A DNA stretch of 64,000 nucleotides, from positions 496,001 to 560,000 of the forward strand of contig NC_089434.1 in assembly GCF_026210795.1 (NCBI RefSeq). Direction: 5' to 3'. Both the position numbers and the translations under genes were made by a program. The DNA is from Rhizophagus irregularis (taxonomy: Eukaryota > Glomeromycota > Glomeromycetes > Glomerales > Glomeraceae). Of the stretch, positions 22,270 through 54,778 are shown in pieces (the first letter of the stretch is position 1; every line of letters starts with the position of its first letter). The notes under the pieces are model-generated. The model worked only from the letters and a program-made list of their open reading frames with translations, was not told the origin of the DNA and did not search any database.

Positions 22270-23173
22270 ATATCTTGTAGTTTTATCTCACGTGCTATTC
22301 TAATTTTCCAAAACTAATTTGTGGTATAGGGCTTTGGCATTAACCCAATATAAGATTTTAAGTCATTCATATGACGCTCCACAACTGATTTAGGTTCTTC
22401 AAACATATCTGGATCTGGCGAGATAACCCAACGGTTTCCGACTTTGTCCAAAAATGATTTGATTCTGTCATTGAAACAATCTTCCATAAAATATCGGTCT
22501 TTAGTTTGTCTCTTTCTACACTTAGAAAAAACAACAATCATATGGCGACAAGATTCTTCTCAACCAAGGAAATTTAGGATTATGTCGTTGATCATCTGTT
22601 CCATTTTATCATATTTACTCCAAGCTTGAAAATTTATTTTTATTGTGAAAATTCATAATATAGAAACAAAATACGCTCATTTGTTGCGTAAATTCTTGTA
22701 AGTACTTACCTATAACGAACAAAAACGCTATTATTCCATGGTTACATCTGACAATTGACTGTGCAATCTCACCCAGGACTTCATCATCATTGGGTCCATA
22801 TGTACTAAAAATACCCGGTGTATCAACTAGGTTATATTCCTTACTATTCAAATTTATTAAAGTATTCTGACAAATATTGGTGCAAGTATCCTTGAAAAAT
22901 AAAATCTGACTGTCAATATTAATCAATGAATTAAATAAATACCGATACCGTATATTTCTTACCAGACCCTCTGATGTTTTGAATTTTTCTTCTCCGATCA
23001 ACATATTTGCCAATGTACTTTTTCCCGCACCTAGTTAAATCTGTTGAGCCAAATAATAATTTTTCCTTCGAATTTCATGCGCAAGACTTCTCACCTGCTT
23101 TGCCAATTAGTAAAATTGTTGGTGCCGTAGAATAAGGGTCAGTCGAAATTCGGTCGCAAAGCTTCGATGACAT
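22270..23173 (-). pseudogene. Type 1 AIG1-like GTPase copy B, stop-broken and without Hint domain
   Basis: The first exons match the intact type 1 genes: 23173-23095, 23030-22963, 22890-22710, and 22624 onward. They encode MSSKLCDRISTDPYSTAP, a P-loop GKAGAGKST and DTPGIFSTYG. In exon 4 the conserved LGREES is changed to LG-stop (TGA at 22562-22560). The frame then continues through VVFSKCRKRQTKD and NRWVISPDPDMFEEP to a stop after PKPYTTN at 22314. Similarity ends near 22270 and no Hint domain follows. It forms the minus half of a decayed head-to-head pair with the relic at 23417. A short GTPase-only product is conceivable but would lack the end of the G domain. Confidence 0.8.
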
Positions 23174-23416
23174 AACGTTATTGTCGAAAAAAAAAAAATC
23201 TTATCAAATAATTCTGCTTGTGTAGCACTGAATGCGCCTTTTTTCCAAAATGAGAAAAATGAAGGGATGCTTATATTTATAAAAATTCTTAATTGAAGTA
23301 AATAATCTCCTGTTTCTTCAGCCAAGCTCTTCGAGGAATACTATTCGAAATATCATTCATTTTATAATAATTTTGTAATAATTCTTTTTTATTTTTTTTT
23401 TAAAAAAAAATTTTAA

Positions 23417-24230
23417 GGTATAAGGGAGATTCGTTTTTGAGTCGAATAATCTGTTGTTTCAGACTCGTTTGCTAGTAATTATAATGAACAACATAGACTT
23501 TAAAAAATAAATCTGAACGAAATTCTCCCTTAATGTAACATTTAAGGAATCTTCGCTTCAAGTAGGTCAAAACCACCTCGATTGAAATAAATAAGAAAAC
23601 GTTCATCATTGTTGGTTGATACACTCAGAATTTTGACATTGGCAAAAGGAATCAAAAGAAACGGCCCAAGAAATCTTGCAATGCGCTTATGTCTTATTGA
23701 TTATATTTGTCACGAGTGTGTAGGATTCTCATGTTCTTTGCACACAAGTAGTTTCCTCATTTTAGAAGCTACCAAGGAGCAGAAACTTATTATCGATCAA
23801 ATTATCAACTCAAATGCAGGAAGGCTTCAACATCAAATTCATTGTTTCAAGAGCAAAAATATTTTCTCAATAGTATTAGCGACAGATTTATTATAGCCTA
23901 ATCGAGGAACAAGTTGACTCAATTGTCACGTTTCACATAAAATTTATACAGAGAAACTTCGTTTGAAGAAATTCGCATTGCTCGAGAGAGAGAACTTCAG
24001 GAAATTGAAGAATAGGAACGCCGAAATTGAAGAATAAATTCAAGCTATAGCATAAAGTGAATACCTCCGCAATAATGATGAAAGGCGACAATAGAAAAAA
24101 TACAAGAAATTTCGACAAAAATCATTAATAATTACGTGTAAATGTTGGGTTGAGATCTGCTACTAATATGAAGATTGGTGAAGAAGGATGTTTTGTTACA
24201 GATTCAAAAGTTACTTCTTAAGTTAGCGAA
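23417..24230 (+). pseudogene. Type 2 AIG1-Hint relic (copy C)
   Basis: Plus-strand remains of a type 2 gene. They include a degenerate P-loop exon (23417-23475, ending in the equivalent of VVSDS), part of exon 3 with a damaged DTPG region (23600-23700), and exon 4 pieces (23767-23900) with a deletion that fuses KIDQIIN to the AGRLQ-like segment. The linker reads FEEIRIARERELQEIEE-stop at 23960-24015. The start of a Hint domain (EGCFVTDSKVT) is at 24180-24215. Frameshifts and stops occur throughout. It faces copy B head to head, as type 2 genes do in the other pairs. Confidence 0.75.
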
Positions 24231-24827
24231 TGTACTAATGTTAGCTGTTTCAACCATTTCACCAATAATTTCATGAGTAGTATTATTATCATTGTTTAGA
24301 ATTGTTTATATAACTAAATAGATATCAACATTGTTGTTTCTCTTAAATCTTTACTCGTGATATAATGAAATATGAAATTTGTAAATCCAAGTATTGTAAA
24401 TTCTTAAGGTATCATAATAAAGATGTGTAGACAATTAAAAACTGAGAATAAAATTGATAATGTATTTATAAATTTTTTTCCATAATGATATTACTGATAT
24501 ATACATCAATAAGTCAAAAAAGAAAAAAACTACCGTACGTGACATCAAAAAGGATAAATCCACATCAGAGAATAATCTAGTTATAATCATATACAGTACT
24601 GTGTCTATGATCAATGTTAATTCAATTAACGTACTCTTTAAATACACGTCCAATTCCAGAATCAATTTAATATCATTGAGAAGACCACATATCACGCATA
24701 GGAATAACAGTGAACATTTATAACAATAAATAAATTCAACAAGATTAAAAAATGTTTTATTTAAAGACGCTTATAAAATTAAGTCAAATTGATCATTAAA
24801 TAGAACATTGGTATAACAAAACTACTT
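24231..24827. other. 3' flank of the type 1 gene, shared among copies
   Basis: No gene. Blocks around 24340-24470 (AAATTTGTAAATCCAA and AGGTATCATAATAAAG) recur downstream of the other type 1 genes at about 43025-43110 and 49430-49510. The duplicated unit therefore extends past the coding region. Confidence 0.6.
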
Positions 24828-26555
24828 TCATAATCTTTTAACAATCGTGTTAAAATAATCTATCTGTTCGAGAATCCATTGACCTCGTTTCAAGTAGCGA
24901 ATATAAGGATGAATTTCTTTTTTACACTCAGGAATGGGCATAATCCATGAGTAGAGACGGAAAGAAATCATCACGAAATCGATGATCGCTTGATAAGGTG
25001 GAGCAACAGCATAGCACGAGCAAAGTATATCATCAACGACAATTTTGCCACTTTGTGTAAGAGGAGCAGTGTAACCAAGTTCCCATTCCTTAAATTAATC
25101 ATAATGAAATAGGGTTAATTAATATAAAAAAATTTCATTAAATACGGAAAACGTAAAATTAATTACTCTTGTAACCCGATGTGGAATCACAGGAATTAAT
25201 TTTTTGCCATCAAAAAGTAAGAGCTCAGTCTCATAAGCTCGAACATCCTCAGCGAAAATGGTTTTTCCTTGAGAAACGAATAAATGGTGTTTAGGTGTGA
25301 GACGTAGGGTGCCTATTGAAAAAAACGAGTGATTCATGCTTAGAAAATATTTGAGAATAAATTATTTAATTAGAAATGTATTTATCACCTTCTGTGCCGC
25401 CTGACTTTAGATAATCGATCCGTTGATACTGAGTCACAGTTTGATTGTCTGTATGGACGACTGCATAAATCTCGCTAAAAATCAATTTACCATTTTTCTC
25501 GCCACAACAAACTTTATCACCGATGTTCAATTGTGACACTTCAATTCTTTTGCCGTCTGCAAGGATAACCTTTGAATGCAGAGGAAAACAACCACCTCCT
25601 TGCTCTTGGAATCCTTCCTTGGCTGCTTCTAATCCTGCATCTATTTGTTCTTCTGTTTCATTTGAATCAATTTCTTGCAGTTCTTTCTCACGTGCAATTC
25701 TAACTTTATCAAACAATTCTGTAGTATAGGGCTTTGGCATTAACCCAATATAAGATCTTAAGTCATTCATATGACGCTCCACAACTGGATCATTTGGTTC
25801 GTCAAATATTTCTGGATCTGGCGAAATAACCCAACGGTTTCCGACCTTGTCCAAAAATGATTTGAGGTCGTCATTGAAACTTTCTTCCATAAAATGTCGG
25901 TCTTTAGTTTGTCTCTTTCTACACTTAGTAAAAACAACAATTACGTGACGACAAGATTCTTCTCGACCAAGGAATCTCAGAATTGTGTCAGTTGTAATTT
26001 TTTGCTCTTTTGTATATCTGCCTCCAGCTTGGAAATTTATTGTATACAAATAAACATTCAGATTATAGAAATAATGTACTTGTCAATTCTTGCAAGAACT
26101 TACCCATAACAAACAAAATCGCCGTTATACCATGACTACATTGGACAATTGACCGTGCAATCTCATTTAGGACTTCATCATCGGGTTTCCGTGTATCAAA
26201 AATACCTGGTGTATCGACGAGATTATATTCCTTACCATTCAACCTGACTAAAGCACTTTGACAAATCTGGGTACTAGAATCCTTGAAAAAAAAAAATGTT
26301 GATTGTCAATGAATCAAATAAATACCAATTCCATACGTTATTTACTGTACCGAATTATCCGAAGTTTTGAATATTTCTTTTTCAACCAACGTGTTTGCCA
26401 ATGTACTTTTTCCCGCACCTAGTTAAATCTGTTGAGCCAAATAATAATTTTGCCTTCGGATTTTAAACGCAAAACTTCTCACCTGTTTTGCCAATTAGTA
26501 AAATTGATGGTGCCGTAGAATAAGGGTCAGTCGAAATTCGGTCGCTGAGCTTCAT
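24828..26555 (-). CDS. GIN1-like: Type 1 AIG1-like GTPase-Hint (Hog) fusion, copy A
   Basis: Six exons: 26555-26483, 26418-26351, 26281-26104, 26027-25389, 25312-25167 and 25088-24828, giving 454 residues. N-terminal AIG1/GIMAP-type GTPase: P-loop GKTGAGKST (split by intron 1), DTPGIFDTRKP, FTKCRKRQTKD in the G4 position, and NRWVISPDPEIFDEP. A charged helix (VRIAREKELQEI) links to a Hedgehog-type Hint domain that starts at GGGCFPLHSKV, with nucleophile Cys. It continues with IGDKVCCGEKNGKLIFSE, the TPKHHLFV motif, then GYTAPLTQSG and VDDILCSCYA. There is no intein HN-Cys end, so autoprocessing like Hog proteins is the expected chemistry; whether it cleaves is unknown. Glomus GIN1 has this domain pair. 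It lies head to head with copy D across 379 bp. Confidence 0.9.
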
Positions 26556-26934
26556 GGTATAGATTGTTAGAAATTAAAATGAAAATGATACCCGAGTTAT
26601 TTAATTCTGCAGGTGTACCACTGTGTACAACCTTGTGTCCGTGTACATCTTGTAGTGTAGGACGAAGATATCACATTAAGATAACACTTTGGGTAAGTAA
26701 CATGGGTTTAACCATGTACACTTTGGCCATCTTAATACTAATATATCTCTCCAATTATCACAATCAGGGGCTTTAGTATTGTTCATTCATATTGTTTTGA
26801 AATTTTTGTGGCATCTTTTGCTGATGCTTATTTTAGGAAATAATGGTATTCGAATTTTCCATTTTTATCATTTTTTATCAAACCTTGTTTTTTATTTCGT
26901 TATCAACAAGAAACCTTTAACCTTATCTCCTAAG
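26556..26934. promoter_or_regulatory. Shared divergent spacer of pair A/D
   Basis: 379 bp between the ATG of copy A (minus) and copy D (plus). It contains GGTGTACCACTGTGTAC at 26612-26628 and a further GTGTACA at 26641. Similar palindromic GTAC blocks occur in the other divergent spacers, near 45296, 52203 and, beside a relic, 40841. A bidirectional promoter is inferred from position and conservation only. Confidence 0.5.
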
Positions 26935-28792
26935 ATGTCTCTTCAGAAAGACTCTTCAAGTAATACTAATTCAAATATTCCTGCCATACTGTTGGTAGGA
27001 AAATCCGGTAAGAATTTATGCACGTGGTGTCAGTTTTACTATAAACATAATTTCATTTTTTTTTTTCAAAAAAAAAAAAAAAAAAAAAAAATTAAGGTGC
27101 CGGTAAAAGTACTTTAGGAAATTTGCTCTTGGGTCGAAATGAATTTGTTGTTTCAGACTCAGCTGTGAGTAATTAGAGTATATACAGTATCATAGAGCCT
27201 TTTAAAACTAATCCAGACAATATTCTCACATAATGTAAACTTTTAAGGAATCCTCGCCACAAGTATGTCAAACTGCTTTGATTAAGATAAATAATAAAAC
27301 GTTCAATATTGTTGATACACCTGGAATTTTTGACACCGGCAAAACGAATCAAGAAATCTTGAAAGAAACAGCCCAAGCAATCTTGCAATGCACTTATGGA
27401 ATTCAAGCCATTATTTTTGTCATGGGTATGTGGAATATTTCGCATTCCTTTATACAGAATTTTTCATATGATTGAAAAAGTTTTCTCATTTTAGAAGCAA
27501 CACGTTTTACTAAGGAACAGAAAGATACTATTAATCAAATTATCAAGTTTCTTGGTCAAGATTCGCTGAACCACATGATTGTAGTGTTCTCAAAATGCAG
27601 AAAGGCTCCGACAAAAGACCCTGACTTGCTCTTTAATTCATTGGTCCAGGAACAGAAGGATTTTCTCAATAGTATTGACAATAGATTCACTGTATCTCCT
27701 GATCTCGATATTTTTGAAGAACCAGACGACCCAATTGTTGAGCGCCACGTGAAAAACCTCAAGAACTATATTGTTGATATTCCAGATTTCTATACAACAG
27801 CTTCCTTTGAAAAAGTTCGCATTGCTCGAGAGAGAGAACTTCAGGAAATTGAACAATGGGAACTCAAAACCGAAGAACAATTTCAAGCTATAGCAAGAGA
27901 AGGCTTTCACGATGATAGTGAATTGCGACAATGGAAGGAAACACGAGAAAATACGAAAAAAAAATTTAAGCAATTACGCGCAAAAGCTGGTTCAGATGCA
28001 GCTGTCAATATGGAGCTTGGAGAAGCTTGTTTTGCTGCAGATTCAAAGGTTACTTTGCAAAATGGCAAAGTTACCAACATTTCGGAACTTGTTATTGGAG
28101 ATTATGTATGTTGTGGCTTTGAGAATGGGAAGAAAATCTTCAGCGAGGTGTTTTTATTTATTCATGCTGACCACGATACAGTGACTGAATTTCAATTAAT
28201 TGATTTCATGAAACAAGATGGATCACAAGGTAATTATTTCATTAATATACAGTATTAATATGTTACCTAGATTTTTTTACTCTCATCGATTTAATTTACA
28301 AAGGAACCCTTTGCGTTACTCCTGAACATCACATTTTCGTGAATGGTGGTGGAACCGATTTTGCCAAAAATGTTATACCAAACAAAACCCAACTTTTTAT
28401 TTCTAACGGAGAGAAATTGGTTCCCGTTACTTCAGCCCGTATATCAAAAGTTAGCATTTTTTTTTTCCTGAAAATTTTTAACTAGTTACTCAATTAGTAG
28501 ATCAAGATCTAATCCCTTTATTTCATTCAACAAGGAACGAAGAAAAGGTTATTATAGTCCCTTGACTCGTAGTGGAAATATTCTTGTTGATGAGGTTCTT
28601 TGTTCTTGTTATGCTTCTGCACCTCCTTATCAAGCCTTGTTTAATTTTGTCTTTGCGCCATTAAAAATCTACACAAAAATTTTTCCTTCTAATTATCTAG
28701 ATAAAGAGATTCATCCTTATGTTAAATTTTTAAGTAGAGGTCGCAGGATAGTAGAATTTCTCGATGATTTAAATATTTCTCGATCTATTTAA
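26935..28792 (+). CDS. GIN1-like: Type 2 AIG1-like GTPase-Hint (Hog) fusion, copy D
   Basis: Exons 26935-27007, 27097-27164, 27248-27425, 27495-28229, 28304-28449 and 28535-28792 encode 485 residues. The G domain has GKSGAGKSTLGNLLLGR, VDTPGIFDTGKT, FSKCRKAPTKDPD in the G4 position, and NRFTVSPDLDIFEEPDDP. A longer charged linker than type 1 (ARERELQEIEQWELKTEEQ, KETRENTKKKFKQ) leads to the Hint domain. That starts at EACFAADSKVTL and shows IGDYVCCGFENGKKIFSE, VTPEHHIFV, GYYSPLTRSG and VDEVLCSCYAS. Exon 2 (68), exon 3 (178) and exon 5 (146 nt) have exactly the lengths seen in copy A, with the same phases. The first ATG after the polypyrimidine-rich spacer was chosen because copy F shares it. 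Confidence 0.9.
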
Positions 28793-29394: not shown

Positions 29395-29396
29395 TT

Positions 29397-30862: not shown

Positions 30863-31226
30863 TTAATCTATCTGTTCGAGAATCCATTGACCTCGTTTCA
30901 AGTGACGAATATAAGGATGAATTTCTTTATCTGTTATTACAATCAGAATGGACATGATCCATGAGTATAGACGGAAAGAAATCATTACGAAATCGATGAT
31001 CGCTTGATAAGGTGGAGCAACAGCATAGCACGAGCAAAGTATGTCATCAACAACAATTTTACCACTTTGTGTAAGAGGAGAAGTGTAACCATTCCTTAAA
31101 TTAATCAAAGTGAAAATGAACAAAGAAAAGTTAATACGGTATAAAGAAATTTATTAAATACGGAAAATGCAAGATTAATTATTATTTTTGTAACCCGATG
31201 CGGAATCACAGGAATTATTAAAATCC
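30863..31226 (-). pseudogene. Type 1 Hint C-terminus relic (copy J1)
   Basis: Minus-strand exon 6 of a type 1 gene with PLTQSGKIVVDDILCSCYA and KEIHPYIRHLKRGQWILEQID, preceded by a remnant of the end of exon 5 (31185-31220, the PVIPHRVT region). Eight nucleotides are missing next to the exon 6 acceptor compared with copy A. The GTPase and the first Hint half are gone. Confidence 0.8.
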
Positions 31227-31389: not shown

Positions 31390-31890
31390 TTGTTTTACAT
31401 GATAGCGTAGTCGCTATTCATTTTTCACGTTAGTAATAAAATGTTGATAACAAAATCGGTTCCATGACGAAAAGGTTCCTTGATCGATTAGATAAATAAA
31501 ATTACAAGCAGTATGTATTATATATTATAATAATTTATCTTGTGTCCCACCTTGTTTCATGAAATCTATAATTGAAATTCAGTCATTGTATTGTGGTCAG
31601 CATGAATAAACAAAAACACTTCGCCAAAGACTTTCTTCCCATTTTCAAAGACACATACATAATCTCCGAAATCTCGGTAAGTTTGCCAATCTGTGAAGTA
31701 ACTGCAGCAAAACATTCATATTGCTTAACCTGTGCTTAACCCAATACTTTTATGCTAGAATTCCTTATAATTCTTCCTATTGTCGCTTTTCGTAGTCATT
31801 GCATTGGACAAGAAATTTTGATAATTTGATTGATAGTATTTTTCGTTCCTTAGTAAATGTATTGCTTCTAAAGTGATAAAATTTTTTCAA
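31390..31890 (-). pseudogene. Type 2 GTPase-Hint relic (copy J2)
   Basis: Minus-strand fragments of type 2 exons 4 and 5. They comprise a start-of-exon-4 piece (EAIHLLRNEK-like, about 31840-31875), a Hint start (ECFAAVTSQIGKLTEIS, 31660-31715), VFENGKKVFGEVFLFIHADHN (31600-31655) and a scrap of the VTPEHHIF region at 31420-31475. Large internal deletions and frameshifts are present. It sits on the same strand as J1, unlike the intact head-to-head pairs. Confidence 0.7.
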
Positions 31891-32045
31891 TCATTTGAAC
31901 AAAATATGATTTAAATTTTTTATTACATACAAATATCTGATGATTTAAATACGAAAAATATAATTATAACTAAAAAAATTTGTCTGACGTTTGGATTAGT
32001 CTCCGTATAAATAATTTGAATTGTGTAACTTAAATCCCATGCTAT

Positions 32046-32506
32046 TGTTGTATCAGTTCTTTTACGCTTAAAAATATTAAGCAATTTATATGGTTAGGTA
32101 GCAGAAGGTTTATGTAGTGTATAGACAAACAATATATCAAAATTATCCGATCAGACGTGTTGTATAGCGCTGTATGTCGGCATATACTTCCAAACACGAA
32201 TAAAGGATTTCACTTGATAAAAAACTATCAATTTATAACTTAAATAAAAACTTTTTTTTATTCCCTCCTCATTACAACAAGAAAATTGACCTATATTTAT
32301 AATAAATTATACATATAAGAAGAAATTTAATATATTTACTATGTATAATATGACTAACATGTTCAATACGTTGATCATAACCAACATGTTGATTAGGTTC
32401 GACATGTTAATCATGTTCGGCATATTAATTATGTCCGACATGTCAATCAAGTTAAACATTTGCAACATCGATCAATTTCGGAGTGGCACATGACGATCAC
32501 ATGACA
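32046..32506 (-). repeat. 3' LTR of the Ty3 element
   Basis: 461 bp. Same sequence as the partner LTR apart from 36 extra bases (about 32396-32440) in a tandem array of CGACATGTTAATCATGTT-type units. Confidence 0.9.
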
Positions 32507-32520
32507 TCATCCCTCCCTAA
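32507..32520 (-). other. Putative polypurine tract
   Basis: Next to the 3' LTR the minus strand reads TTAGGGAGGGATGA, the expected purine-rich plus-strand primer. Confidence 0.65.
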
Positions 32521-32942
32521 TTTTCAACTCCGTTGAAAATTTCCGAAGCTTGTAGAACTAAACCTTGATATTCTTGAGTGTTAAGTTCTCTCAGCAATGA
32601 TACGTTGGTCTTTTTAGTTCTCATAATTTGTTTGGCTCCTGGAATTTCGAAAATATAAAAAATCCTAGTAGCAGAGGTCCTGTAATGTGCAGTTAACTGT
32701 CGCACAAAGTAATTGCGCTGCACACTGGACTCAGTTTCTTTTTCCAAAAATCGACCCAAATAATATAAGTGAACAAGGAGTAAAAGCCGATTGTTAAAAT
32801 GCTTAATCCGGTTCAAAGCATCACAAAGAATTTCAAATTTTCTTTCAGGCTTCATATTAGGTTCATAGGGAAGTGGAAAAGGTGTCACTTCAACTGGAGT
32901 TGTTTGTAGTAAATCTTTTAGGATACTTTGATAGGGTTCCAT
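32517..32942 (-). CDS. Extra ORF of the Ty3 element, function unknown
   Basis: 141 residues, sense orientation, between integrase and the polypurine tract. It begins MEPYQSILKDLLQ and ends SEIFNGVEN, and its stop falls inside the polypurine tract. The protein is rich in Leu/Arg, predicted largely helical, and has no Cys cluster or membrane segment. I do not recognise it. Unlike the other frames of this element it is uninterrupted. Confidence 0.6.
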   Translation of the reverse strand: MEPYQSILKDLLQTTPVEVTPFPLPYEPNMKPERKFEILCDALNRIKHFNNRLLLLVHLYYLGRFLEKETESSVQRNYFVRQLTAHYRTSATRIFYIFEIPGAKQIMRTKKTNVSLLRELNTQEYQGLVLQASEIFNGVEN

Positions 32943-33099
32943 ACTAATAATAAAAATAATAAAAAAAAATAATAAAAAAAATGTATATATATATATGTTT
33001 TTTCATTAAACATTAAACATATTAATCCCCAAAAAAAAAAAAAAATGATCTTTGGTCTAATTATTTGTAATACATTATGTACATATATGCATTACGTTA

Positions 33100-34352
33100 T
33101 CACCGTTGATTGTAAAGTTTCAAACGTTCCGAATTTACTGGGGTTTTTAAAATGTCTCCTTGTAATGTCCTTAATTTGTAAACTCCGTTCCCCAAATCCT
33201 CGTGAATGTAATAAGGACCCTTCCAACGGTCTTGCAGCTTTTTCTTTCCCCTCAGCTGACTTTTATATAATAATACAAGATCACCAATCTTGTAAAATAT
33301 TCTCACAAGATTTTCATCATGACGCTGCTTCTGCTGCTGTTGTGCTTCATATATGGCGTCTTGAGTCATCAATCTGTCTTCTGTGACTCTTCCAGTAAGC
33401 ATGCGTATTCTAGCCAATAAATCATCTTGTGAATCTCCTTCATGCAGTTCAGCTTGCATAGTCTTTACTGCAAAATCTACAGGTAGAACGGCATCTCTTC
33501 CATACATGAGATAAAATGGTTTGTGACGCGTGGTGCTTTGCTTTCTTACACGATATGCAAACAAAGCAGAGGACATATACATGTCCCAATCATCATGATT
33601 TTCATTTGAAAATTTCACCAACGCCTCACACAATGTCCTATTAAAACGCTCCACAAGACCATTTGTTTGGGGGTGATAGGCAGTTGATAATTGATGTTTT
33701 ACCCCAAGCTCATCACATAATGAATCCAACATTTCATTAACAAAATGGGACCCACGATTGGTTAGTATTTCTTTTGGGCACCCGTGGCGGCAGATTATGT
33801 CTTCATAGAAAAAAGACACAACTGAAGAAGCTTTTGCATCAGGAAGGGCTCGTGCCTCGGGCCATTTGGTAAGATACTCAGTGGCAACAACTATATACTT
33901 GTTGCCTTTCTTTGTTGTGGGAAGGGGTCCTACGATATCTATGCCTATCCTGTCAAAAGGCATTCCAACTTTGATCGGGTGTAGAGGTTCTACACGTCGA
34001 TTTCCCCCTTTCTTTGGCACTCGTCGCAAGTTCGTACATATCTACGAACATCTTCGTACATCTGCGGCCAGTAATAGCAAACCTTTACTCGCCTATAGGT
34101 TTTGTCCAAGGAAAAGTGTCCGGCCAGCGGATCTGAATGGGTAAAATGTAAAATTTCTCCAATTTCGTTTTCTTTCACAACCTTAATAGGTCTATTTGGG
34201 TTGTTTTTATTTCTTTTGTATAACTGATCATTCAATACAATAAAGTATCGGTCTTTTCGTCTTATTGCATCTTGTTGTTTTTTCGTCATGTCTGTTGGTA
34301 ATGATAAATCCGTCAAAAATCGTATTAATAAATAATATGTGGTGGTATCCAT
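33100..34352 (-). pseudogene. Ty3 integrase, frameshifted and with Asp-to-Asn change
   Basis: The HHCC zinc part (HFTHSDPLAGHFSLDKTY, CDECQRKG) is in one frame (34352-33990) and the catalytic core in another (34029-33100). The break lies at the run of five G (34004-34008). The core has the first Asp in GIDIVGPL and the Glu in NGLVERFNRTL. The second Asp of the D,D-35-E triad is Asn: TNRGSHF instead of TDRGSHF (codon 33759-33757). The C-terminus (GDLVLLYKS, RWKGPYYI) is intact; no chromodomain is seen. Confidence 0.85.
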
Positions 34353-34449
34353 TCCGTTAAATCAATAATGGGAAGTCCGTTAAGTGGTGTCAAAAAAAAA
34401 ATGCGTTAATCCGGTGTGTATATATATATAAAAAAAAATATGGGTTGTA

Positions 34450-35772
34450 TTAAACTCTTATTCGGCTTAGTGTATCGACGTTGGTGTGTTGTTTTCCGGG
34501 GCGGTTAACTATTTCCAAATCATATCCGTTAAGAGTCATCAACCATCTTCCGAGCTTACCAACAGGGTTCGACATGTTCATTAAATACCTTAAAGCGGCG
34601 TGATCAGTTACAACGGTAAATCGTTGTCCGTGCAAATAATGATGAAAGTGCTTGACGGCCCATATAACCGCAAGACACTCCAGTTCCATGACACTATAGT
34701 TCCGTTCATGCTTATTTAGAGTCCAGCTCGCATAAGCAATGACGCGTTCTTTTTTATCGTCATCCTTTTGGGATAATATTGCGCCCAACGCAAAAGTAGA
34801 GGCGTCGGTATATAACAAGAACAGTCTTTCGAAATTAGGATACGCCAATATAGGTGGCATTGTTAAACAAGTCTTTAATTTTTCAAACGCGGCTTGTTGA
34901 TCTTTATCCCAAATATACGGGATATTTTTCTTTAATAACCTATTCAACGGTTCAACGATAGACGAGAAGTTCTTCACGAACTTCTGGTAATACGAGGCCA
35001 GCGCAATAAATCCCCTTAATTGCGTTAAGTCTTTCGGAATGGGAAATTCGTTGATGGTGCGTAATTTTTCAGGATCGGTATGGATGCCTTTTCGGCTCAC
35101 CACATGTCCTAGGAAAGGAAGTTCTTCTTTAAAAAAGAAACACTTCTCAGGACTTAATTTTAAACCAGCCTTCTCTAGACGTGAGAAAACCTGTTCCAGA
35201 TGCACCAAATGCTCTTCGAAGGTTTTCGACCCTACATTAATATCGTCGATGTATACTACCGTGAACTGCCAAAGAATGTCTCGTAACACCATATCCATTA
35301 GACGTTGAAAGGTTGCAGGAGCGTTACAGAGGCCAAAAGGCAACACGGTAAACTCATACGTCCCGAACCTGGTGATGAACGTTGATTTTTCTCGATCTTT
35401 TGGGTCCAATTCGACCTGCCAAAAGCCACTGGCAAGGTCTAAGGACGAGAACCATCGAGATCCTGATAATGTCTCCAACATATCGTCTATTCGTGGTAAA
35501 GGATAGCAATCCTTTTTGGTGACCTTGTTGAGTTTCCGATAATCCACACAAAGGCGCTTCTTCCCGTTCTTTTTTTCTACTACAACCACAGGAGAAGTCC
35601 ATTGACTACTTGATGGCACAATTAGACTGGCCTCCAAGAGTCGTTGTATTTCCTCTTTGATGAACAACTGATTCTGATGTGACGTCCGGTAAAATCTTTG
35701 CTTGATGGGGGTCGCACCTCCGGTATCGATAGTGTGTGTAACCACTGATGTTTGACCGAAATCATTTGAGTT
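34450..35772 (-). CDS. Ty3 pol, reverse transcriptase-RNase H part
   Basis: Same frame as the protease and separated from it by two TAG codons (35826-35824 and 35775-35773). RT motifs: KKNGKKRLCVDYRKLN, FSSLDLASGFWQVEL, LPFGLCNAPATFQRLMD and catalytic YIDDI. RNase H: LYTDASTFALGAILSQ, SVMELECLAVIWA and VVTDHAALRYL. It ends with the usual NVDTLSRI. All catalytic acids look intact. Confidence 0.9.
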   Translation of the reverse strand, partial: NSNDFGQTSVVTHTIDTGGATPIKQRFYRTSHQNQLFIKEEIQRLLEASLIVPSSSQWTSPVVVVEKKNGKKRLCVDYRKLNKVTKKDCYPLPRIDDMLETLSGSRWFSSLDLASGFWQVELDPKDREKSTFITRFGTYEFTVLPFGLCNAPATFQRLMDMVLRDILWQFTVVYIDDINVGSKTFEEHLVHLEQVFSRLEKAGLKLSPEKCFFFKEELPFLGHVVSRKGIHTDPEKLRTINEFPIPKDLTQLRGFIALASYYQKFVKNFSSIVEPLNRLLKKNIPYIWDKDQQAAFEKLKTCLTMPPILAYPNFERLFLLYTDASTFALGAILSQKDDDKKERVIAYASWTLNKHERNYSVMELECLAVIWAVKHFHHYLHGQRFTVVTDHAALRYLMNMSNPVGKLGRWLMTLNGYDLEIVNRPGKQHTNVDTLSRIRV

Positions 35773-35823
35773 CTACGCAAACAGATTATTATATTTTTTT
35801 ATGAATTCATGAAATTGCTGTTG

Positions 35824-38648: not shown

Positions 38649-38679
38649 AAAAGGGGATTAAAGGTAGGGATCGGAAATT

Positions 38680-38696
38680 CTGGCAGAAGGCACCAA
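38680..38696 (-). other. Putative primer-binding site
   Basis: Directly inside the 5' LTR the minus strand reads TTGGTGCCTTCTGCCAG. The TGGTGCC start is complementary to a tRNA ending GGCACCA. The tRNA was not identified. Confidence 0.6.
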
Positions 38697-38698
38697 TT

Positions 38699-39123
38699 TG
38701 TTGTATCAGTTCTTTTACGCTTAAAAATATTAAGCAATTTATATGGTTAGGTAGCAGAAGGTTTATGTAGTGTATAGACAAACAATATATCAAAATTATC
38801 CGATCAGACGTGTTGTATAGCGCTGTATGTCGGCATATACTTCCAAACACGAATAAAGGATTTCACTTGATAAAAAACTATCAATTTATAACTTAAATAA
38901 AAACTTTTTTTTATTCCCTCCTCATTACAACAAGAAAATTGACCTATATTTATAATAAATTATACATATAAGAAGAAATTTAATATATTTACTATGTATA
39001 ATATGACTAACATGTTCAATACGTTGATCATAACCAACATGTTGATTATGTCCGACATGTCAATCAAGTTAAACATTTGCAACATCGATCAATTTCGGAG
39101 TGGCACATGACGATCACATGACA
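38699..39123 (-). repeat. 5' LTR of the Ty3 element
   Basis: 425 bp, TG...CA ends in either reading. No base differences from the other LTR were seen by eye, but it is 36 bp shorter because of a contraction within a short array of GACATGTTAAT-type repeats. Confidence 0.9.
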
Positions 39124-39127
39124 CTAT

Positions 39128-40930: not shown

Positions 40931-40935
40931 ACATT

Positions 40936-43464: not shown

Positions 43465-45230
43465 TCACGATCTTTTAATAATCATGTTAAAATAATCTAT
43501 TTGCTCGAGAATCCATTGACCTCGTTTCAAGTAACGAATATAAGGATGAATTTCTTTACTACACTCAGGAGTGGGCATGATCCATGAGTAGAGGCGGAAA
43601 GAAATCATTACGAAATCGATGATCGCTTGATAAGGTGGAGCAACAGCATAGCACGAGCAAAGTATATCATCAACAACAATTTTACCACTTTGTGTAAAAG
43701 GAGCAGTGTAACCAAGTTCCCATTCCTCAAATTAATCAAAGTGAAAATGAACAAAAAAAGGTTAATACGTATAAAGAAATTTATTAAATACGGAAAACGT
43801 AAGATTAATTATTACTCTTGTAACCCGATGTGGAATCACAGGAATTAATTTTTTGCCATCAAAAAGTAAGAGTTCAGTCTCATGAGCTCGAACATCTTCA
43901 GCGAAAATGGTTTTTCCTTGAGAAACGAATAAATGGTGTTTTGGAGTGAGACGTAGAGTGCCTATTCGAAAAAAACGAGTGATTTATGCTTAGAAAGTAT
44001 TTGAGAAACATTTAATTAGATATTTATTTATCACCTTCAGTGCCGTCTAACTTTAGATAATCGATCCGCTGATATTGAGTATCAGTTTGGTTGTCTGCAT
44101 GGATGATTGCATAAATCTCGCTAAAAATCAATTTACCATTTTTTTCTCCACAAAAAACTTTGTCGCCGATGCTCAATTGTGACGCTTCAATTCTTTTGCC
44201 GTTTGCGAGAATAACCTCTGAACGCAGAGAAAAACAAGTACCCTTTTTTTTCACTTCTTCTTTGGCTACGACGGTTCCTGCATCTATTTTTTCACTTGTT
44301 TTTACCAATCCAGTTTTATTCTCATTTGATTCAATTTCTTGCAGTTCTTTCTCACGTGCAATTCTAACATTATCAAACAATTCTGTGGTATAGAGATTTG
44401 GCATTAGCCTAATATAATGTTTTAGGTCATCCATGTGACGCTCCACAACTGGATCATTTTGTCTTTTGAAAATTTCTAGATTTGGCGAGATGACCCAGCG
44501 GTTTCCGACTTTGTCCATAAATGATTTAAGGTTGATATTGAAATTATTTTCCATATAAACTCGGTCTTCTGTTTGTTCTTTTTTACACTTGGTAAACACA
44601 ACAATTATATGACGACAAGATTCTTGACCAAGGAATTTCAGGGTTTCATTAGTAATATCTTGAAACTCTCGTCCAATTTTTTCCCAAGCTTGAAAAGTTG
44701 TTGTATACAAAATAAACATTCAGGATATCATAGAAATAAAACACGCTCATTAATACTTACAATAACTTACCTAAGACATATAAAATCGCTGATATACCAT
44801 GACAACATTGGACAATTGACTGTGCAATCTCATTTAGGACTTCACGGTCGGGTTTCTGTGTATCAAAAATACCCGGTGTATCAACAAGATTATATTCTTT
44901 ACCATTTATATTTATTAAAGTACTTTGACAAATCTGGGTGAGAGAATCCTTGAAAAATAAAATGCCAGTTGTCAACGTTAATTAATTAATTATATAACAT
45001 ACCGATACTAGTTTCTTACCGAACCATCCGATGTTTGGAACTTTTCTTCTCCAATCAACATATTTGCCAATGTACTTTTTCCCGCACCTAGTTAAATCTG
45101 TTGAGCCAAATAATAATTTTCCTTCGGATTTTTATGCGCAAGACTTCTGACCTGTTTTACCAAATAGTAAAATTGCTGGTGCCGTAGAATAAGGGTCAGT
45201 CAACATTCGACTACGAAGCTCCAACGTCAT
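43465..45230 (-). CDS. GIN1-like: Type 1 AIG1-like GTPase-Hint fusion, copy E
   Basis: Exons 45230-45152, 45087-45020, 44948-44771, 44688-44035, 43961-43816 and 43725-43465 encode 461 residues. The G domain shows GKTGAGKSTLANMLIGEE, DTPGIFDTQKPD, FTKCKKEQTED and NRWVISPNLEIFKRQ. The charged linker EKELQEIESNENKTGL is followed by the Hint start KGTCFSLRSEV, where Thr rather than Gly precedes the nucleophile Cys. It continues with IGDKVFCGEKNGKLIFSE (Phe-Cys instead of Cys-Cys), TPKHHLFV, GYTAPFTQSG and VDDILCSCYA. Intron 1 uses GTCAGA as donor, weaker than the GTGAG of copies A and G. It faces copy F across only 188 bp. Confidence 0.9.
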
Positions 45231-45418
45231 AATATTTTCGTCAGAATTAAAATACAAATGATTTTCTTAAAAATGAGGATTATTTAATTTTGCTAGTGTA
45301 CCACCGTGTACAGTACTACCGAAAATAGGGGTATGTTTCAGAATGCTTATTTTAGGAATTAATAGTCATTTTTGTTTTTTACTTGATCGACAACCTAATT
45401 GAAGCCTTGTCTCCTAAG
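45231..45418. promoter_or_regulatory. Shared divergent spacer of pair E/F
   Basis: 188 bp between opposite start codons, the shortest spacer of the pairs. It contains GTGTACCACCGTGTACAGTAC at about 45296-45316, a near-palindrome also found in the other spacers. A bidirectional promoter is inferred. Confidence 0.5.
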
Positions 45419-47174
45419 ATGTCTCTTCAGCAAGACTCTTCAAGTAATACTAATTCAGATATTCCTGTCATACTGTTGGTAGGAAAATCCGGTAAGAACT
45501 TATGACGTAATGTCAATTGTTGTTTATAAATATAATTTCATTTCTCTTTTTTTTTAAAAAAAAAAATCAAGGTGCTGGTAAAAGTACTCTGGGAAATTTG
45601 CTCTTAGGTCGAAATGAATTTGCTGTTTCAGACTCAGCTGTGAGTAATTATAATTAATATAATAGAGACTTTTAAAAACAAATCGGGACGAAATTCTTAC
45701 ATAATGTAAATTTTAATAAGGAATCTTCGCTACAAGTGTGTCAAACTGCCTTGATTGAAATAAATAATAAAACGTTCAATCTTATTGATACTCCTGGAAT
45801 TTTTGATACTGGTAAAACGGATCAAGAAATCTTGAAAGAAACAGGCCAAGCAATCTTGCAATGCGTTTATGGAATTCAAGCCATTATTTTTGTCATGGGT
45901 ATGTAGAATTTTTCACATTCTTTATACAGAGTCTTTCAAATGGTTGAAAAAGTTTTCTTACTTTAGAGGCAACACGTTTTACTAAGGAACAGAGAGATAC
46001 TATCAATCAAATTGAAAAATATCTTGGCCCGGATTCGCTGAATCACATGATTGCAGTGTTTTCAAAATGCAGAAAGGCTCCGACAATAGACCCTGACTTG
46101 CTCTTTAATTCATTAGCCCAAGAACAAAAGGATTTTCTCAATAGTATTGACAATAGATTCACTATATCTCCTAATCTCGAGATTTTTGAAGAACCAGACG
46201 ACCCAATTGTCGCGCGCCACATTAAAAACCTCAAGAACTACATTGCTGATATTCCAAATTTCTACACAACAGCTTCCTTTGAAAAAGTTTGCATGGAAAT
46301 TGAACGTCGACATTTGGAGGAAACACGAGAAAATACGAAAAAAAATTCTCAGCAATCACGTGCAATTGCTGGTTATAACAATATGGTGCGTGAAGCAGCA
46401 GGTTGTTTTGCTGCACATTCAAAGGTTACTCTGCAAAATGGCAATGTCGCCAACATTTCGGAACTTGTTATTGGAGATTATGTATGTTGTGGTTTTGAGA
46501 ATGGGAAGCAAATCTTCAGCGAAGTGTTTTTATTTATCCATGCTGATCACGATGCAGTGACTGAATTTCTATTAATTGATTTCATGAAACAAGATGGAAC
46601 ACAAGGTAATTATTTCATTAATATATTTATATATACTACCTAAAATTTAAGTATTTACTTTACTTAATCAACTTAATTTACAAAGGAACCTTTTGCGTTA
46701 CTCCTGAGCATCACATTTTCTTGAATGATGGTGGGACTGATTTTGCCAAAAATATTATACCAAACAAAACTCAATTTTTTATTTCCAGCAGAGAGAAATT
46801 GATTCCCGTTACTTCAACCCGTATAACAAAAGTTAATATTTTTTTTTTTCTGAAAATTTCTAATTGGTTGCACACTTAAAAGATCAGACCCTAATCTCTT
46901 TATTTCATTTAATAAGGAACGAAAAAAAGGTTATTATAGTCCTTTGACTCGAAGTGGAACTATTCTTGTGGATGAGATTCTTTGTTCTTGTTATTCCTCT
47001 GCGCCTCCTTATCAAGCCTTATTTAATTTTGTCTTTGCGCCATTAAAAATCTACACAAAAATTTTTCCTTCTAATTATCTAGATAAAGAGATTCATCCTT
47101 ATGTGAAATTCTTAAATAGAGGCCGCAAGATAGTAGAATTCCTTGACTATTTAAATATTCCTCGATCTCTTTAA
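45419..47174 (+). CDS. GIN1-like: Type 2 AIG1-like GTPase-Hint fusion, copy F
   Basis: Exons 45419-45491, 45572-45639, 45721-45898, 45967-46605, 46686-46831 and 46917-47174 encode 453 residues. Closest to copy D, with the same MSLQ.DSSSNTNS start. The G domain has GKSGAGKSTLGNLLLGR, DTPGIFDTGKT and FSKCRKAPTIDPD. The linker is about 32 residues shorter than in D, lacking most of ARERELQEIEQ. Hint: GCFAAHSKVTLQNG, IGDYVCCGFENGKQIFSE, VTPEHHIFL, GYYSPLTRSG and VDEILCSCYSS (last Ala is Ser). Reading frame and splice phases are intact. Confidence 0.9.
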
Positions 47175-50287: not shown

Positions 50288-52074
50288 TCATGCTCTTTTA
50301 ACAATCGTGTTAAAATAATCTATCTGTTCGAGAATCCATTGACCTCGTTTCAAGTAACGAATATAAGGATGAATTTCTTTCTTACAATCAGGATTGGGTA
50401 TAATCCATAAGTAGAAGCGGAAAGAAATCATTACGAAATTAATGACTTGCTGATAAGGTGGAGCAACAGCATAACACGAGCAAAGTATATCGTCAACAAC
50501 AATTTTACCACTTTGTGTAAGTGGAGCAGTGTAACCAACTTCCCATTCCTTTAAGTTAATTAAAGCGGATTGAAAAAACGTTAATATAAAGCAAATTTAT
50601 TAAAATATGGAAACGTAAGATTAATTACCTTTGTAACCCGATGTGGAATAACAGGAATTAATTTTTTGCCATCGAAAAGTAAGAGCTCAGTTTCGTAAGC
50701 TCGAACGTCTTCAGCAAAAATTGTTTTTCCCTGAGAAACGAATAAATGGTGTTTTGGTGTGAGACGTAGGACGCCTATTAGAAAAAAAGATGACACAATG
50801 TTATTATGATACATTTAATAATGAATGATTTAAATTGGAAGTTAATTTTTATTACCTTTTGTGCCATCTGACTTTAGATAATCGATCCGTTGATATTGAG
50901 TCGTGGTCTGATTGTCTGTATGGATGACTGCATAAATCTCGCTAAAAATCAATTTACCATTTTTCTCTCCACAAAAAACTTTATCACCGATGTTCAATTG
51001 TGACACTTCAATTCTTTTGCCGTCTGCAAGGATAACCTTTGAATACAGAGAGAAACAACCACCTCCATTATCTTCGAATCCTTCCTTGGCTGCGTTGATT
51101 CCTGCGTCTATTTTTTTATTTGTTTCTACTACCCCAGTCTTTTTCTCGTTTGATTCAATTTCTTGCAATTCTTTCTCACGTGCAATTCTAACTTTTTCAA
51201 ACAATTCTGTGGTATAGGGTTTTGGCATCATTTTAATGTAATATTTTAAGTCATTCATATGACGCTCCACAACCGGATCATTTGGTTTATCAAAGATTTC
51301 CGGATTCGGAAAGATGACCCAGCGATTTCCGACTTTTTCCAAAAACGTTTTGAAGTAGTCACCAAAATCATCTTCCATTTTATACCGGTCTTCAGTTTGT
51401 TTTTTATTACATTTAGTAAAAACAACAATCATATGCCTACTAGATTCTTTTTCGCCGAGGAATTTCAGGATTACGTCAGTTGTAGCTTTTTGCTCAAGGG
51501 TGTCTTTGCCCCATTCTTGAAAATTTACAATAAATGAGTATTTGGAATATTTACTGTAAATAATCACTAATTACGGTAAATGTAACGTCGATTATTATTT
51601 GTTTACCTATAACATACAAAATTGCTATGGTACCATGACTGCATTGGACAATTGATCGCGCAATTTCTTTCAGGGTTTCATCATTTGGTTTTCTTACATC
51701 AAAAATACCCGGGGTATCAACAAGGTTGTATTCAATACATTCATCATCATGCAATTTAATTAGATCACATTGACAAAACTGGGTACAAGATTCCTTGAAA
51801 TAAAATGCTGAATATCAATATCGGTCAGTATATTAGATACTAAAAAATAGCTACGTTTTCTTACTTACTCGACTATCTGACGTTTTGAACTTTTCATCAT
51901 CTTCAAACAGTTTATTTGCCAACGTGCTTTTTCCCGAGCCTAATTAAACCATTTTAGGTTAAACTTCAATTTTTCATTTGGATTTTTATTCTCACCTGTT
52001 TTGCCAATTATCAGAATTGCTGGCGCCGAAGAATAAGGGTCCGTCAAAATTCTCCTACGAAGATCCAATGTCAT
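50288..52074 (-). CDS. GIN1-like: Type 1 AIG1-like GTPase-Hint fusion, copy G
   Basis: Exons 52074-51996, 51939-51869, 51793-51607, 51515-50856, 50774-50629 and 50548-50288 encode 467 residues. The most divergent type 1 copy: exon 2 has one extra codon and exon 3 three. The G domain has GKTGSGKSTLANKLFEDDEKF, DTPGIFDVRKPND, FTKCNKKQTED and NRWVIFPNPEIFDKP. Linker EKELQEIESNEKKTGV; Hint start GGGCFSLYSKV, then IGDKVFCGEKNGKLIFSE, LTPKHHLFVSQ, GYTAPLTQSG and VDDILCSCYA. All Hint signature residues are kept, and the extra codons preserve frame, so it is likely functional. It pairs with copy H across 986 bp. Confidence 0.9.
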
Positions 52075-53060
52075 AATTTTTTTGAACAAAATTCTTATAA
52101 TTTTTTAAAAAAAAGCTGATGATAATATAACATCAAAAGCTGAAATTTATTATATTATTTATATTCATGCAAATTGCCATTACTATTTCTTTACAGTAAC
52201 CACCATGTACCACGGAACCATCACTTTTTTCGTATAACCAGGGATTTTATGATATTTTTCATAGTTCATTATGATATAATGATCTACAGTTATAAGTGGA
52301 AATTACATCATAATGAAAAACGAGGGAAAAAATATTTTTTGTTTATTAATTAATTAATCGGCTAGAGCGTAAATGTAAAGTTACTATGAGTAATATGGTT
52401 AACAACATGGCGGGTGTAGATCCAGAATTACGGAATTGTTTAACTACTTGATGGCTATGGCCTTACGTAAGATTTTCTTTTGTGTAGATCCTATTTACTT
52501 TTTAGGAAATCAATAAAATTTTATTTATTAGCTAATATTTGGATTACGCCTACTATGTCTGAACCAACCCTGGTTAAAAGTTAAAACAATTATGTTAAAA
52601 AGTTCACACAAGCCATAAGTTTTTCTCCCAAGTAGATTTTATACTTGCATTAGACGGACTATCGTCATCTTGTATTCCTTAATAGTGTTAATCATTAATT
52701 TTTTTGTTTATTATTTATTAGTGAGAATATTTTTTCACATAAAGATTCGTTGCTACATCTGATCATGATGTAAATTTTTATTATGTAAAAAAATATTACG
52801 TGGTGTTAGTACTTAAAATCACGACCAAAAAAGAGTAAGTCTTTTGACGACCATTAGTTAGCAAAAGAACTTTAAATATTTTTTAAAAAAAAATTGATAT
52901 TTTTAGATCTGAAAGAAAAAAATTTTTTCTTGCGATATATTCATGTAAAATTTCGTTTAATCCTCAAAATTGGCTATTTTTCTTTTTTTGTTTTGTTTTC
53001 ATTCCTTCGAATTGATTAAATTTTTTATCCAATAGTACTAATAGTACTCAATCTCTTATA
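52075..53060. promoter_or_regulatory. Divergent spacer of pair G/H
   Basis: 986 bp, the longest spacer. CACCATGTACCACGGAACCATCACT at 52201-52225 resembles the GTAC blocks of the other spacers and the block at 20590. The remainder is AT-rich, possibly expanded by insertions. Confidence 0.4.
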
Positions 53061-54778
53061 ATGTCCCACCAATACTCTTCAAGTAATGATAATGTAAATT
53101 TCCCAGTTATCCTACTAGTAGGAAAAACCGGTAAGATATTGCACTTATATTTATTTAAATTATCTTAAAAAATTACAGCTTTTGTTCTTGTTCCTAAATT
53201 AAAGGATCTGGAAAAAGTACCTTGGGAAATCTGCTTTTGGGAAGAGATGAATTTTTTGTCTCTGATTCGACTGTAAGTAATTGTAATGAAAAAAAATCTT
53301 TACAAATTATTCAAATAAATTCTGAAATTTTGATATAATGGAACTTTTAAGATTTCCTCAACTAAAAAATGTCAAATGGCCTCGACTATAATAAATGAGA
53401 AAATGTTTACTATCATTGATACACCCGGAATTTTTAGGACTGATAAAACGAATCAGGAAATTCCGAGAGATATGGAGCAAGCAATCTCACAATGTGGATA
53501 TGGAATTCAAGCTATCATAGTTGTTATAGGTGTGTATGATATCAGAATATTTTTATGAAGTTTTCAAATGATTAAAAAAAGTTTCCTCATTTAAGAGGCT
53601 ACTCGTTTTACAAAGGAACAGAGAGACACTATTGATCAAATTATCAAATTTCTCGGCAAGGAGTCGTTAAACAACATGATTGCGGTATTTACAAAGTGTA
53701 AAAAGGCTCCAACAATAGATTCTGATTTGCTCTTCAATTCATTGGTTCCAGAACAAAAGGAATTCCTAGGTCAATTTGACAACAGATTTATTGTATCGCC
53801 TAATCCCGATATTTTTGGAAAACCTGACGACCCAATTGTTGCACGTCATATGACGAAACTCAAGAATTATATTGTAGGCTTTTCAGATCTCTATAGAATA
53901 GATATCTTTGAAAAAGCTCACAGCAACCGACTACGAGAAAATCAGATATATTATACATTATATAATTTGTATACATTTGTAAAAAATTCATTTAAAGATC
54001 ATGCAATTGAAGAAGAAGAATGTTTTGCCGCGGATTCAAAAGTCACTTTGCGAAATGGCAAAGTTATCAAGATTTCGGAACTCGTTATTGGAGACTATGT
54101 ATGTTGTGGATTTGAGAATGGGAAACAAGTCTTCAGCGAAGTGTTATTATTTATTCATGCCGACCACAATTCAATGACGGAATTTCAATTAATTGATTTC
54201 ATGAAGCAGGATGGGTCACTGGGTGATTATTATATATTAATATACCATCTAGAATTTTATTTTATTCTTTTGTTCTAATCTATTTTATTTATTAACGTTA
54301 AGGAACCTTTTGCATTACTCCTGAACATCATATTTTCATGAATAATGGTGGAACCGGGTTGGCCAAAAATGTTATACCGAACAAAACTAAACTTTTTGTT
54401 TCAGATGGTGAGAAATTAGTTTCTGTTACTACAACACGTATTACGAAAGTTAGTATATTTATTTTGAAGTTTTATTGTATTGAAAAGAAAAGAAAAAACT
54501 CATTACTTTCGTTTGATAAGGAACGAAGAAAAGGTTATTATAGTCCGTTGACTCGAAGTGGCACCATCCTTGTTGACGAGGTTCTTTGCTCTTGTTACGC
54601 TTCTGCGCCGCCATATCAATCCTTGATCAACTTTGCCTTTGCACCATTAAAAATCTATACAAAAATTTTTCCATCTAAACATCTGGAGAAGGAGATACAT
54701 CCTTATGTGAAATTTTTAAATAAAGGGCGCGGAATAGTAGAATTCCTTGATTATTTAAATTTCCCTAAAAAGGCTTAG
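53061..54778 (+). CDS. GIN1-like: Type 2 AIG1-like GTPase-Hint fusion, copy H
   Basis: Exons 53061-53130, 53205-53272, 53352-53529, 53596-54222, 54303-54448 and 54521-54778 encode 448 residues. The G domain shows GKTGSGKSTLGNLLLGRDE, DTPGIFRTDKT, FTKCKKAPTIDSD and NRFIVSPNPDIFGKP. Both members of this pair have GSGKS where the others have GAGKS. The linker lost the ARERELQ helix and reads SNRLRENQIYYTLYN. Hint: EEECFAADSKVTLRNG, IGDYVCCGFENGKQVFSE, ITPEHHIFM, GYYSPLTRSG and VDEVLCSCYAS. Frame and phases are intact. Confidence 0.9.

What the first reader, a model, noticed from the sequence alone, without database searches (positions are those of the whole stretch)
22270..54778. Repeated head-to-head pairs of two GTPase-Hint fusion types
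Four times a type 1 gene (minus; CGEKNGKLIF, TPKHHLF, APLTQSG) faces a type 2 gene (plus; CCGFENGK, TPEHHIF, SPLTRSG): B/C decayed, A/D, E/F and G/H intact. Lone or inverted copies (I, J) are all broken. The GTPase-Hog fusion itself is known from Glomus GIN1; an obligate two-type divergent pairing is not something I know to be described. AIG1/GIMAP GTPases are known to dimerise, so a matched pair of partners that both carry a self-processing domain is a reasonable, untested idea.
Basis: partly seen in the sequence, partly recalled or inferred. Interest (0 to 1): 0.9.

Follow-up and report, generated by a model that had tools for sequence, protein, structure and literature searches.

The report
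Paired, facing GTPase–Hedgehog-domain fungal genes
A root-dwelling soil fungus carries repeated pairs of facing genes, each encoding a membrane-type GTPase fused to a Hedgehog-like self-cutting domain; by gene numbering the same two partners are also neighbours in a related genus, so the partnership looks old and worth testing.

Summary
The window (Rhizophagus irregularis) holds five tandem blocks, each with one type 1 (T1, minus) and one type 2 (T2, plus) AIG1-GTPase/Hog gene, originally head to head. Three blocks are intact and one is decayed. The 'lone' copies I and J are two halves of one T1 gene cut at the same point by an inversion, beside a T2 scrap and a Gypsy element: a fifth, wrecked pair. 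In the genome searches T1/T2 appear only here, apart from two scraps. The blocks are tandem copies, so they count as one event. Independent support is T1/T2 neighbours by gene number in R. clarus and Funneliformis geosporum, and a second divergent pair type on contig 17. The family also has at least three intact unpaired genes, so facing is not a family rule. Both Hog domains keep Cys1, TxxH and SCY and have a sterol-recognition-like tail. They carry His at Hedgehog's general-base Asp, the D46H swap known to stay active with wider sterol tolerance. Best reading: an ancient co-inherited pair of GIMAP-like GTPases, each self-cleaved and probably lipid-tagged, acting as partners. Pairing is shown; activity, adduct and dimer are inferred. 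The fusion and its Glomeromycotina expansion were already known.

The parts
22266..23173 (-). Block 1, T1 remnant (GTPase part only, 2 stops)
23655..24245 (+). Block 1, T2 scraps
   Evidence: tblastn pieces 23655-23991 and 24165-24245
24828..26555 (-). Block 2, gene A, T1 intact AIG1-Hog (6 exons; model contained in P0015, OCT59_025889)
26556..26934 (.). Block 2, divergent intergenic region (379 bp)
26613..26628 (-). Element GTACACNGTGGTACAC upstream of A
26935..28792 (+). Block 2, gene D, T2 intact AIG1-Hog (linker splicing differs between my model and two annotations)
30864..31217 (-).
31493..31902 (-). Block 3, T2 remnant (inverted)
32045..39123 (-). Gypsy-type LTR element inside block 3 (LTRs 32045-32506 and 38698-39123; ORFs between read by eye as reverse transcriptase, integrase and gag-like)
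40845..40870 (+). Two overlapping copies of the element upstream of J (one with 1 mismatch)
40936..42244 (+).
43465..45230 (-). Block 4, gene E, T1 intact
45231..45418 (.). Block 4, divergent intergenic region (188 bp), element at 45296-45311
45419..47174 (+). Block 4, gene F, T2 intact (model contained in P0004, OCT59_025893)
50288..52074 (-). Block 5, gene G, T1 intact
52075..53060 (.). Block 5, divergent intergenic region (986 bp)
53061..54778 (+). Block 5, gene H, T2 intact

Best explanation
T1 and T2 are the two members of an old, co-inherited divergent gene pair. Each encodes a GIMAP/AIG1-type GTPase fused through a short variable linker to a Hedgehog-class Hog domain (Hint plus a sterol-recognition-like tail). 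Proposed working: (1) both genes are read from one short intergenic region; (2) each precursor cleaves itself at Cys1 of the Hint domain; (3) the thioester is resolved by a lipid alcohol, most likely a membrane sterol, leaving an intracellular GTPase with a lipid at its C-terminus, the job that hydrophobic C-terminal segments do in membrane GIMAPs; (4) T1 and T2 GTPases meet on the membrane and work as partners, as GIMAP2 and GIMAP7 do. Shown here: pair architecture, block duplication, conserved catalytic residues, predicted folds, neighbourhood by gene number in two other species. Inferred: shared promoter, cleavage, lipid adduct, heterodimer.
Against: The HPR motif of the first SRR helix (H374, P379, R381 of human SHH) is not fully kept: by eye, His is Asn or Asp in T1 and T2, and Pro is Ser in 7 of 13 T1 rows, as in A, E and G. 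Of 5 Gigasporaceae rows, 5 keep His and Pro and 2 keep all three. T1 keeps Arg at the finger position in 10 of 13 rows, so the asymmetry is partial. Glomus cerebriforme has T1 but no T2 in the hits. Strand in Funneliformis and R. clarus could not be read. Intact unpaired relatives exist. No experiment shows cleavage, adduct or binding. The guanine-specifying Asp of the G4 motif is not at its usual place in this fungal family (by eye; motif recalled), so nucleotide use is uncertain. The tail and linker of the T1 model are of low confidence.
Confidence: 0.42

Rival explanations
1. The facing arrangement is only the frozen result of one old inverted duplication that was later copied in blocks; T1 and T2 are ordinary paralogues with no working link.
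For: The blocks share flanks and duplicate as units. Sister clades of the same family have intact unpaired genes: C2:5513378-5515241, C2:5887689-5889674 and C24:767771-769422, and less surely C2:5659467-5661573, whose model needs a doubtful 5-base exon. Inverted duplicates are common in duplicated families (established knowledge).
Against: Neighbourhood kept in Rhizophagus and Funneliformis while the types fell to 43-52% identity. Both types in R. clarus show one protein nearest the A/D pair and two nearest the G/H pair. A second divergent pair type (3a/3b) on contig 17.
Confidence: 0.33
2. The pairs are a nonself-recognition or mating-response system, with fast-changing GTPase and linker parts reading partner identity.
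For: An Aig1 gene (GBC10892.1) rose in co-inoculated R. irregularis isolates in all three hosts (PMC7490403, passages), and another paper links AIG1-Hint (C46) proteins of this species to that response (PMC8778642, passage). T1 GTPase changes faster than its T2 partner at similar overall dS: dN 0.195 (A-E) against 0.057 (D-F).
Against: GBC10892.1 was not shown to be a window gene. dN/dS stays below 1 in the GTPase and Hint parts in 6 of 6 comparisons; one of six linkers exceeds 1. No allelic data were seen.
Confidence: 0.12
3. The Hog domain works as a plain self-cutting protease that frees the GTPase by hydrolysis, with no lipid attached.
For: Altered HPR motif in the first SRR helix; His instead of Asp at the general base.
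Against: D303H of Drosophila Hedgehog has similar catalytic efficiency to wild type and takes more sterols (PMC9163320, section 11). SRR-like helices and a mostly kept I/L-H-P-Y motif.
Confidence: 0.13

Closest known systems
GmGIN1 of Glomus (Funneliformis) mosseae and the Glomeromycotina AIG1-Hint (peptidase family C46) expansion
   Same: Same two-domain architecture; for GmGIN1 a bona fide Hog domain and no signal peptide are reported (PMC2362128 and PMC8778642, passages).
   Different: No two-type division and no facing pair described in the passages read. Which type GmGIN1 belongs to was not determined here.
Hedgehog C-terminal autoprocessing domain (1AT0; D46H variant 6TYY)
   Same: Hint fold, Cys1, TxxH, SCY, helical tail after Hint.
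   Different: N-terminal partner is an AIG1 GTPase; natural His at D46; HPR motif of the first SRR helix altered.
GIMAP2/GIMAP7 of vertebrates
   Same: AIG1 GTPase fold; a two-member partnership in which one stimulates the other.
   Different: GIMAPs as described in PMC8201404 (passages) anchor by hydrophobic C-termini, not a Hog domain; the fungal family lacks the usual G4 Asp; dimerisation untested here.
Divergent 3a/3b AIG1-coiled-coil-Hint genes on contig 17 of the same genome
   Same: Head-to-head genes of two subtypes of the same family.
   Different: Long charged, coiled-coil-like linker; the 2664 plus gene has no Hint found; the two subtypes split within their own clade.

Membership tests
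AIG1/GIMAP GTPase family (PF04548) | AIG1 domain above Pfam cut-off | tested here: met
   103 bits (H, T2) and 90.5 bits (G, T1) against 27
AIG1/GIMAP GTPase family (PF04548) | GIMAP G-domain fold | tested here: met
AIG1/GIMAP GTPase family (PF04548) | GTP-dependent dimerisation | not testable with these tools
   only single-chain models offered
Hog (Hedgehog-type Hint) domain | Cys1, TxxH and SCY catalytic set | tested here: met
   C253, T325, H328, S392, C393 invariant in 38 of 38 rows; Tyr of SCY nearly invariant
Hog (Hedgehog-type Hint) domain | Asp at position 46 (Hint numbering) | tested here: not met
   His in 36 of 37 rows with a residue there; Asp only in Endogone P0026. D46H in Drosophila Hedgehog stays active
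Hog (Hedgehog-type Hint) domain | C-terminal SRR/ARR helix-loop-helix | tested here: met
   helices 401-407, 409-417, 429-446 (T2) and 401-417, 429-453 (T1, low confidence); sequence match to Drosophila Hh runs past the Hint end
Hog (Hedgehog-type Hint) domain | HPR motif of first SRR helix | tested here: not met
   N or D instead of H in T1 and T2; S instead of P in 7 of 13 T1 rows (register by eye)
Hog (Hedgehog-type Hint) domain | self-cleavage with sterol transfer | not testable with these tools
   needs biochemistry
Conserved divergent gene pair (T1/T2) | both types adjacent in other species | tested here: met
   by gene number only: R. clarus _16450004/_16450005; F. geosporum 4492/4493
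Conserved divergent gene pair (T1/T2) | head-to-head orientation in other species | not testable with these tools
   the protein search gives no genomic context, and the contig collections still open to me hold viruses and prokaryotes
Conserved divergent gene pair (T1/T2) | T1 never without T2 across species | tested here: inconclusive
   no T2 named from Glomus cerebriforme, F. caledonium or R. diaphanus in the hits; clusters are at 90% identity, one name is shown per cluster, and annotation may be missing

The most novel reading that the evidence does not exclude
A heterotypic pair of self-lipidating GTPases: two GIMAP-like GTPases made from one divergent promoter, each cut by a Hog domain with a natural D46H active site and tagged with a non-cholesterol sterol (R. 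irregularis commonly makes 24-methyl- and 24-ethylcholesterol as major sterols, PMC7151148 passage), so that they meet on a membrane and T2 completes the active site of T1. This would be a non-secreted, non-animal use of Hedgehog chemistry.
Probability: 0.22. Interest if true: 0.85.

Novelty: new variant of a known kind. Interest (0 to 1): 0.57.

Why it matters
The AIG1-Hog fusion was described in 2002 (cited in PMC2362128) and, in what I read, has no tested mechanism. A conserved two-type pair gives a concrete test: express T1 and T2 together and look for cleavage, adduct and binding. The natural His at the Hedgehog general-base site is a ready-made comparison for the engineered D46H enzyme. 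If a sterol is attached, Hedgehog-type lipidation would reach intracellular signalling outside animals. The inversion in block 3 also shows one way in which a pair of facing homologues is lost.

Tried and rejected
Rejected: that the repeats are independent pairings (tandem block copies). Rejected: that I and J are lone copies (shared breakpoint). Not supported: T1 and T2 spread genome-wide (counts there are lower bounds). Considered: inteins, BIL and Vint. The Hint models also match inteins and BIL at lower Z, but sequence and tail favour Hog; Vint gave about 20 bits, below its cut-off of 27.

Not counted as AIG1-Hint genes: spliced hits that gave an AIG1 part without a credible Hint part (C14, C24:2.171 Mb, C23, C7:3.673 Mb, C3, C21, C2:5828 kb), weak hits on C25 and C7:5.14 Mb, and a minus-strand hit on C24. 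C2:5806592-5808483 has two AIG1 parts and no Hint.

Literature: searches for the fusion or its arrangement listed no paper on two facing types. For the general-base His I searched D46H and read passages or a section; none mentioned it in this family. Only open-licence PMC papers are held; Requena 2002 was not read.

The element GTACACNGTGGTACAC: with up to 1 mismatch it occurs at 4 places in the genome, all 4 upstream of A, E or J, against 1 match of the reversed control. G and the decayed block 1 have no match at that level. With 3 mismatches the window gives one further match, inside the Gypsy element. This may be plain block homology and is not proof of regulation. Intergenic regions of A/D and E/F share short conserved stretches; G/H shares none of significance with either.

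Partial use: trees used 57 of 60 assembled rows for the GTPase part and 51 of 60 for the Hint part, quick method, SH-aLRT only. Alignments A2 and A3 used 38 of the 175 proteins known by then. Some database proteins (for example P0009, P0043) may be truncated annotations.
Full report
WHAT IS THERE. The window is positions 496001-560000 of contig C6 in a 146.7 Mb, 32-contig genome. I take it to be Rhizophagus irregularis: the model of gene A is contained in protein OCT59_025889 and that of gene F in OCT59_025893, and contig C2 has the length (6138810) listed for OCT59_012508. Spliced models show three intact pairs of facing genes, A/D, E/F and G/H. Five genes have six exons; D was modelled with seven, and two annotations splice its linker otherwise. 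One decayed pair lies at 22.27-24.25 kb.

THE 'LONE' COPIES. T1 homology in I and J stops at one and the same base of each intact T1 gene (25198 in A, 43847 in E, 50660 in G). I holds the 3' part on the minus strand, J the 5' part on the plus strand, with a T2 remnant and a Gypsy element between. The simplest account is an inversion of about 11 kb with one end inside the T1 gene. So the array is five blocks, and no T1 or T2 in the window is without remains of a partner. The T2 end of the inversion was not located: no T2 tail was found between 42245 and 43400. The element's LTRs show no mismatch, only 36 gap positions, so its insertion looks recent (inference).

ONE EVENT OR MANY. Blocks share sequence across both genes and the flanks. 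A-E and D-F have nearly equal dS (0.285, 0.297), and G and H are the outer branch in both types (A-G 0.455, E-G 0.485; D-H 0.806, F-H 0.785). The lower T1 values come largely from the Hint part and may reflect gene conversion (inference). Hence the blocks most likely multiplied as pairs, from one founding pair.

GENOME-WIDE. With T1 and T2 proteins as queries, the close matches outside the window are two scraps: C7:1.917 Mb, T1-like with 7 frame breaks and 2 stops, and C2:2.2256 Mb, a T2-like tail. More distant AIG1-Hint relatives lie on C17, C2 and C24. On C17 two minus genes (2660184-2662494; 2667397-2669711, one frame mark) face two plus genes (2664015-2665475, one frame mark, no Hint found; 2670594-2672880, one frame mark); a further plus gene (2651086-2652614) has no Hint found. 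The frame marks may be modelling faults. Minus and plus genes form two groups in the GTPase tree; in the Hint tree one minus gene (2660) groups with a plus gene, which suggests conversion. On C2 the genes with a Hint part lie on the plus strand. Two of these (5513378-5515241, 5887689-5889674) and one on C24 (767771-769422) are intact without a facing partner in the stretches read; a third on C2 (5659467-5661573) is less sure. Facing is thus repeated in the family but not general.

OTHER SPECIES. T1 and T2 each include Rhizophagus and Funneliformis proteins. F. geosporum 4492_t and 4493_t are T1 and T2 with the same longest-contig length (32302). R. clarus _16450004 (T1, nearest G, 82%) and _16450005 (T2, nearest H, 71%) are neighbours by tag. 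Strand was not available. R. clarus shows three T1 (P0013, P0021, P0033) and three T2 (P0002, P0009, P0011), in both types one nearest the A/D pair and two nearest the G/H pair. Against: Glomus cerebriforme gave two T1 (P0017, P0122) and no T2.

THE PROTEINS. T1 and T2 share 43-52% identity across types. The N-terminal half is a GIMAP-like GTPase, the C-terminal part a Hog domain. Cys1, T and H of TxxH, and SC are invariant in 38 rows. The Hedgehog general-base position is His in 36 of 37 rows. The residue before Cys1 is Gly in 9 of 13 T1 rows (others S, A, A, T) and A, G, E or Q in 7 T2 rows (3, 2, 1, 1). dN/dS is 0.15-0.27 in Hint, 0.14-0.52 in GTPase and 0.26-1.55 in linkers. Residue numbers and the variant name L100Q of 3ZJC place GIMAP7 Arg103 at the Arg of T2 'EATRFT'. 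It is Arg in 7 of 7 T2 rows and 10 of 13 T1 rows, with Lys in window E and G by eye.

HOW IT MIGHT WORK. See Best explanation. Shown: pair, duplication, residues, predicted folds. Inferred: shared promoter, cleavage, lipid, heterodimer. D303H of Drosophila Hedgehog keeps activity and widens sterol use (PMC9163320, section 11). R. irregularis commonly makes 24-methyl- and 24-ethylcholesterol as major sterols (PMC7151148, passage). These make sterol transfer plausible; the altered HPR motif (motif from PMC7906309 passages) argues for caution.

KNOWN OR NEW. The fusion (GmGIN1) and the family's Glomeromycotina expansion are in print (PMC2362128, PMC8778642, passages). My searches and the passages I read showed no description of two facing types or of the natural His in this family; the library holds only open-licence papers.

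Noticed in passing
32045-39123: Gypsy-type LTR element; its LTRs align with 0 mismatches and 36 gap positions, so insertion looks recent. It lies inside the inverted block 3.
   Followed up: partly
10700-12186, 15236-16705, 56315-57677 (-): Three protein-kinase-like gene pieces (by eye) flanking the cluster on both sides; one holds a 200-base run of N at 56318-56517.
   Followed up: no
C17:2660184-2672880 (L030, L031): A second head-to-head arrangement of AIG1-Hint genes with long linkers; the Hint part of one minus gene groups with a plus gene (possible gene conversion).
   Followed up: partly
C2:5497204-5500078 (L032): AIG1-Hint gene whose Hint part lacks the SCY stretch in my models, so perhaps inactive in self-cleavage.
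   Followed up: no
C10:20139-178937: Cluster of AIG1 GTPase matches on both strands, with no match on that contig among the 28 Hint matches.
   Followed up: no
P0026 and P0037 (Endogone sp. FLAS-F59071): Two Endogone AIG1-Hog proteins, one with Asp and one with His at the Hedgehog general-base position: a natural D/H swap inside one strain.
   Followed up: no
26613-26628, 40845-40870, 45296-45311: 16-base near-palindromic element GTACACNGTGGTACAC, found in the genome (up to 1 mismatch) only upstream of T1 genes A, E and J; absent at that level upstream of G.
   Followed up: partly
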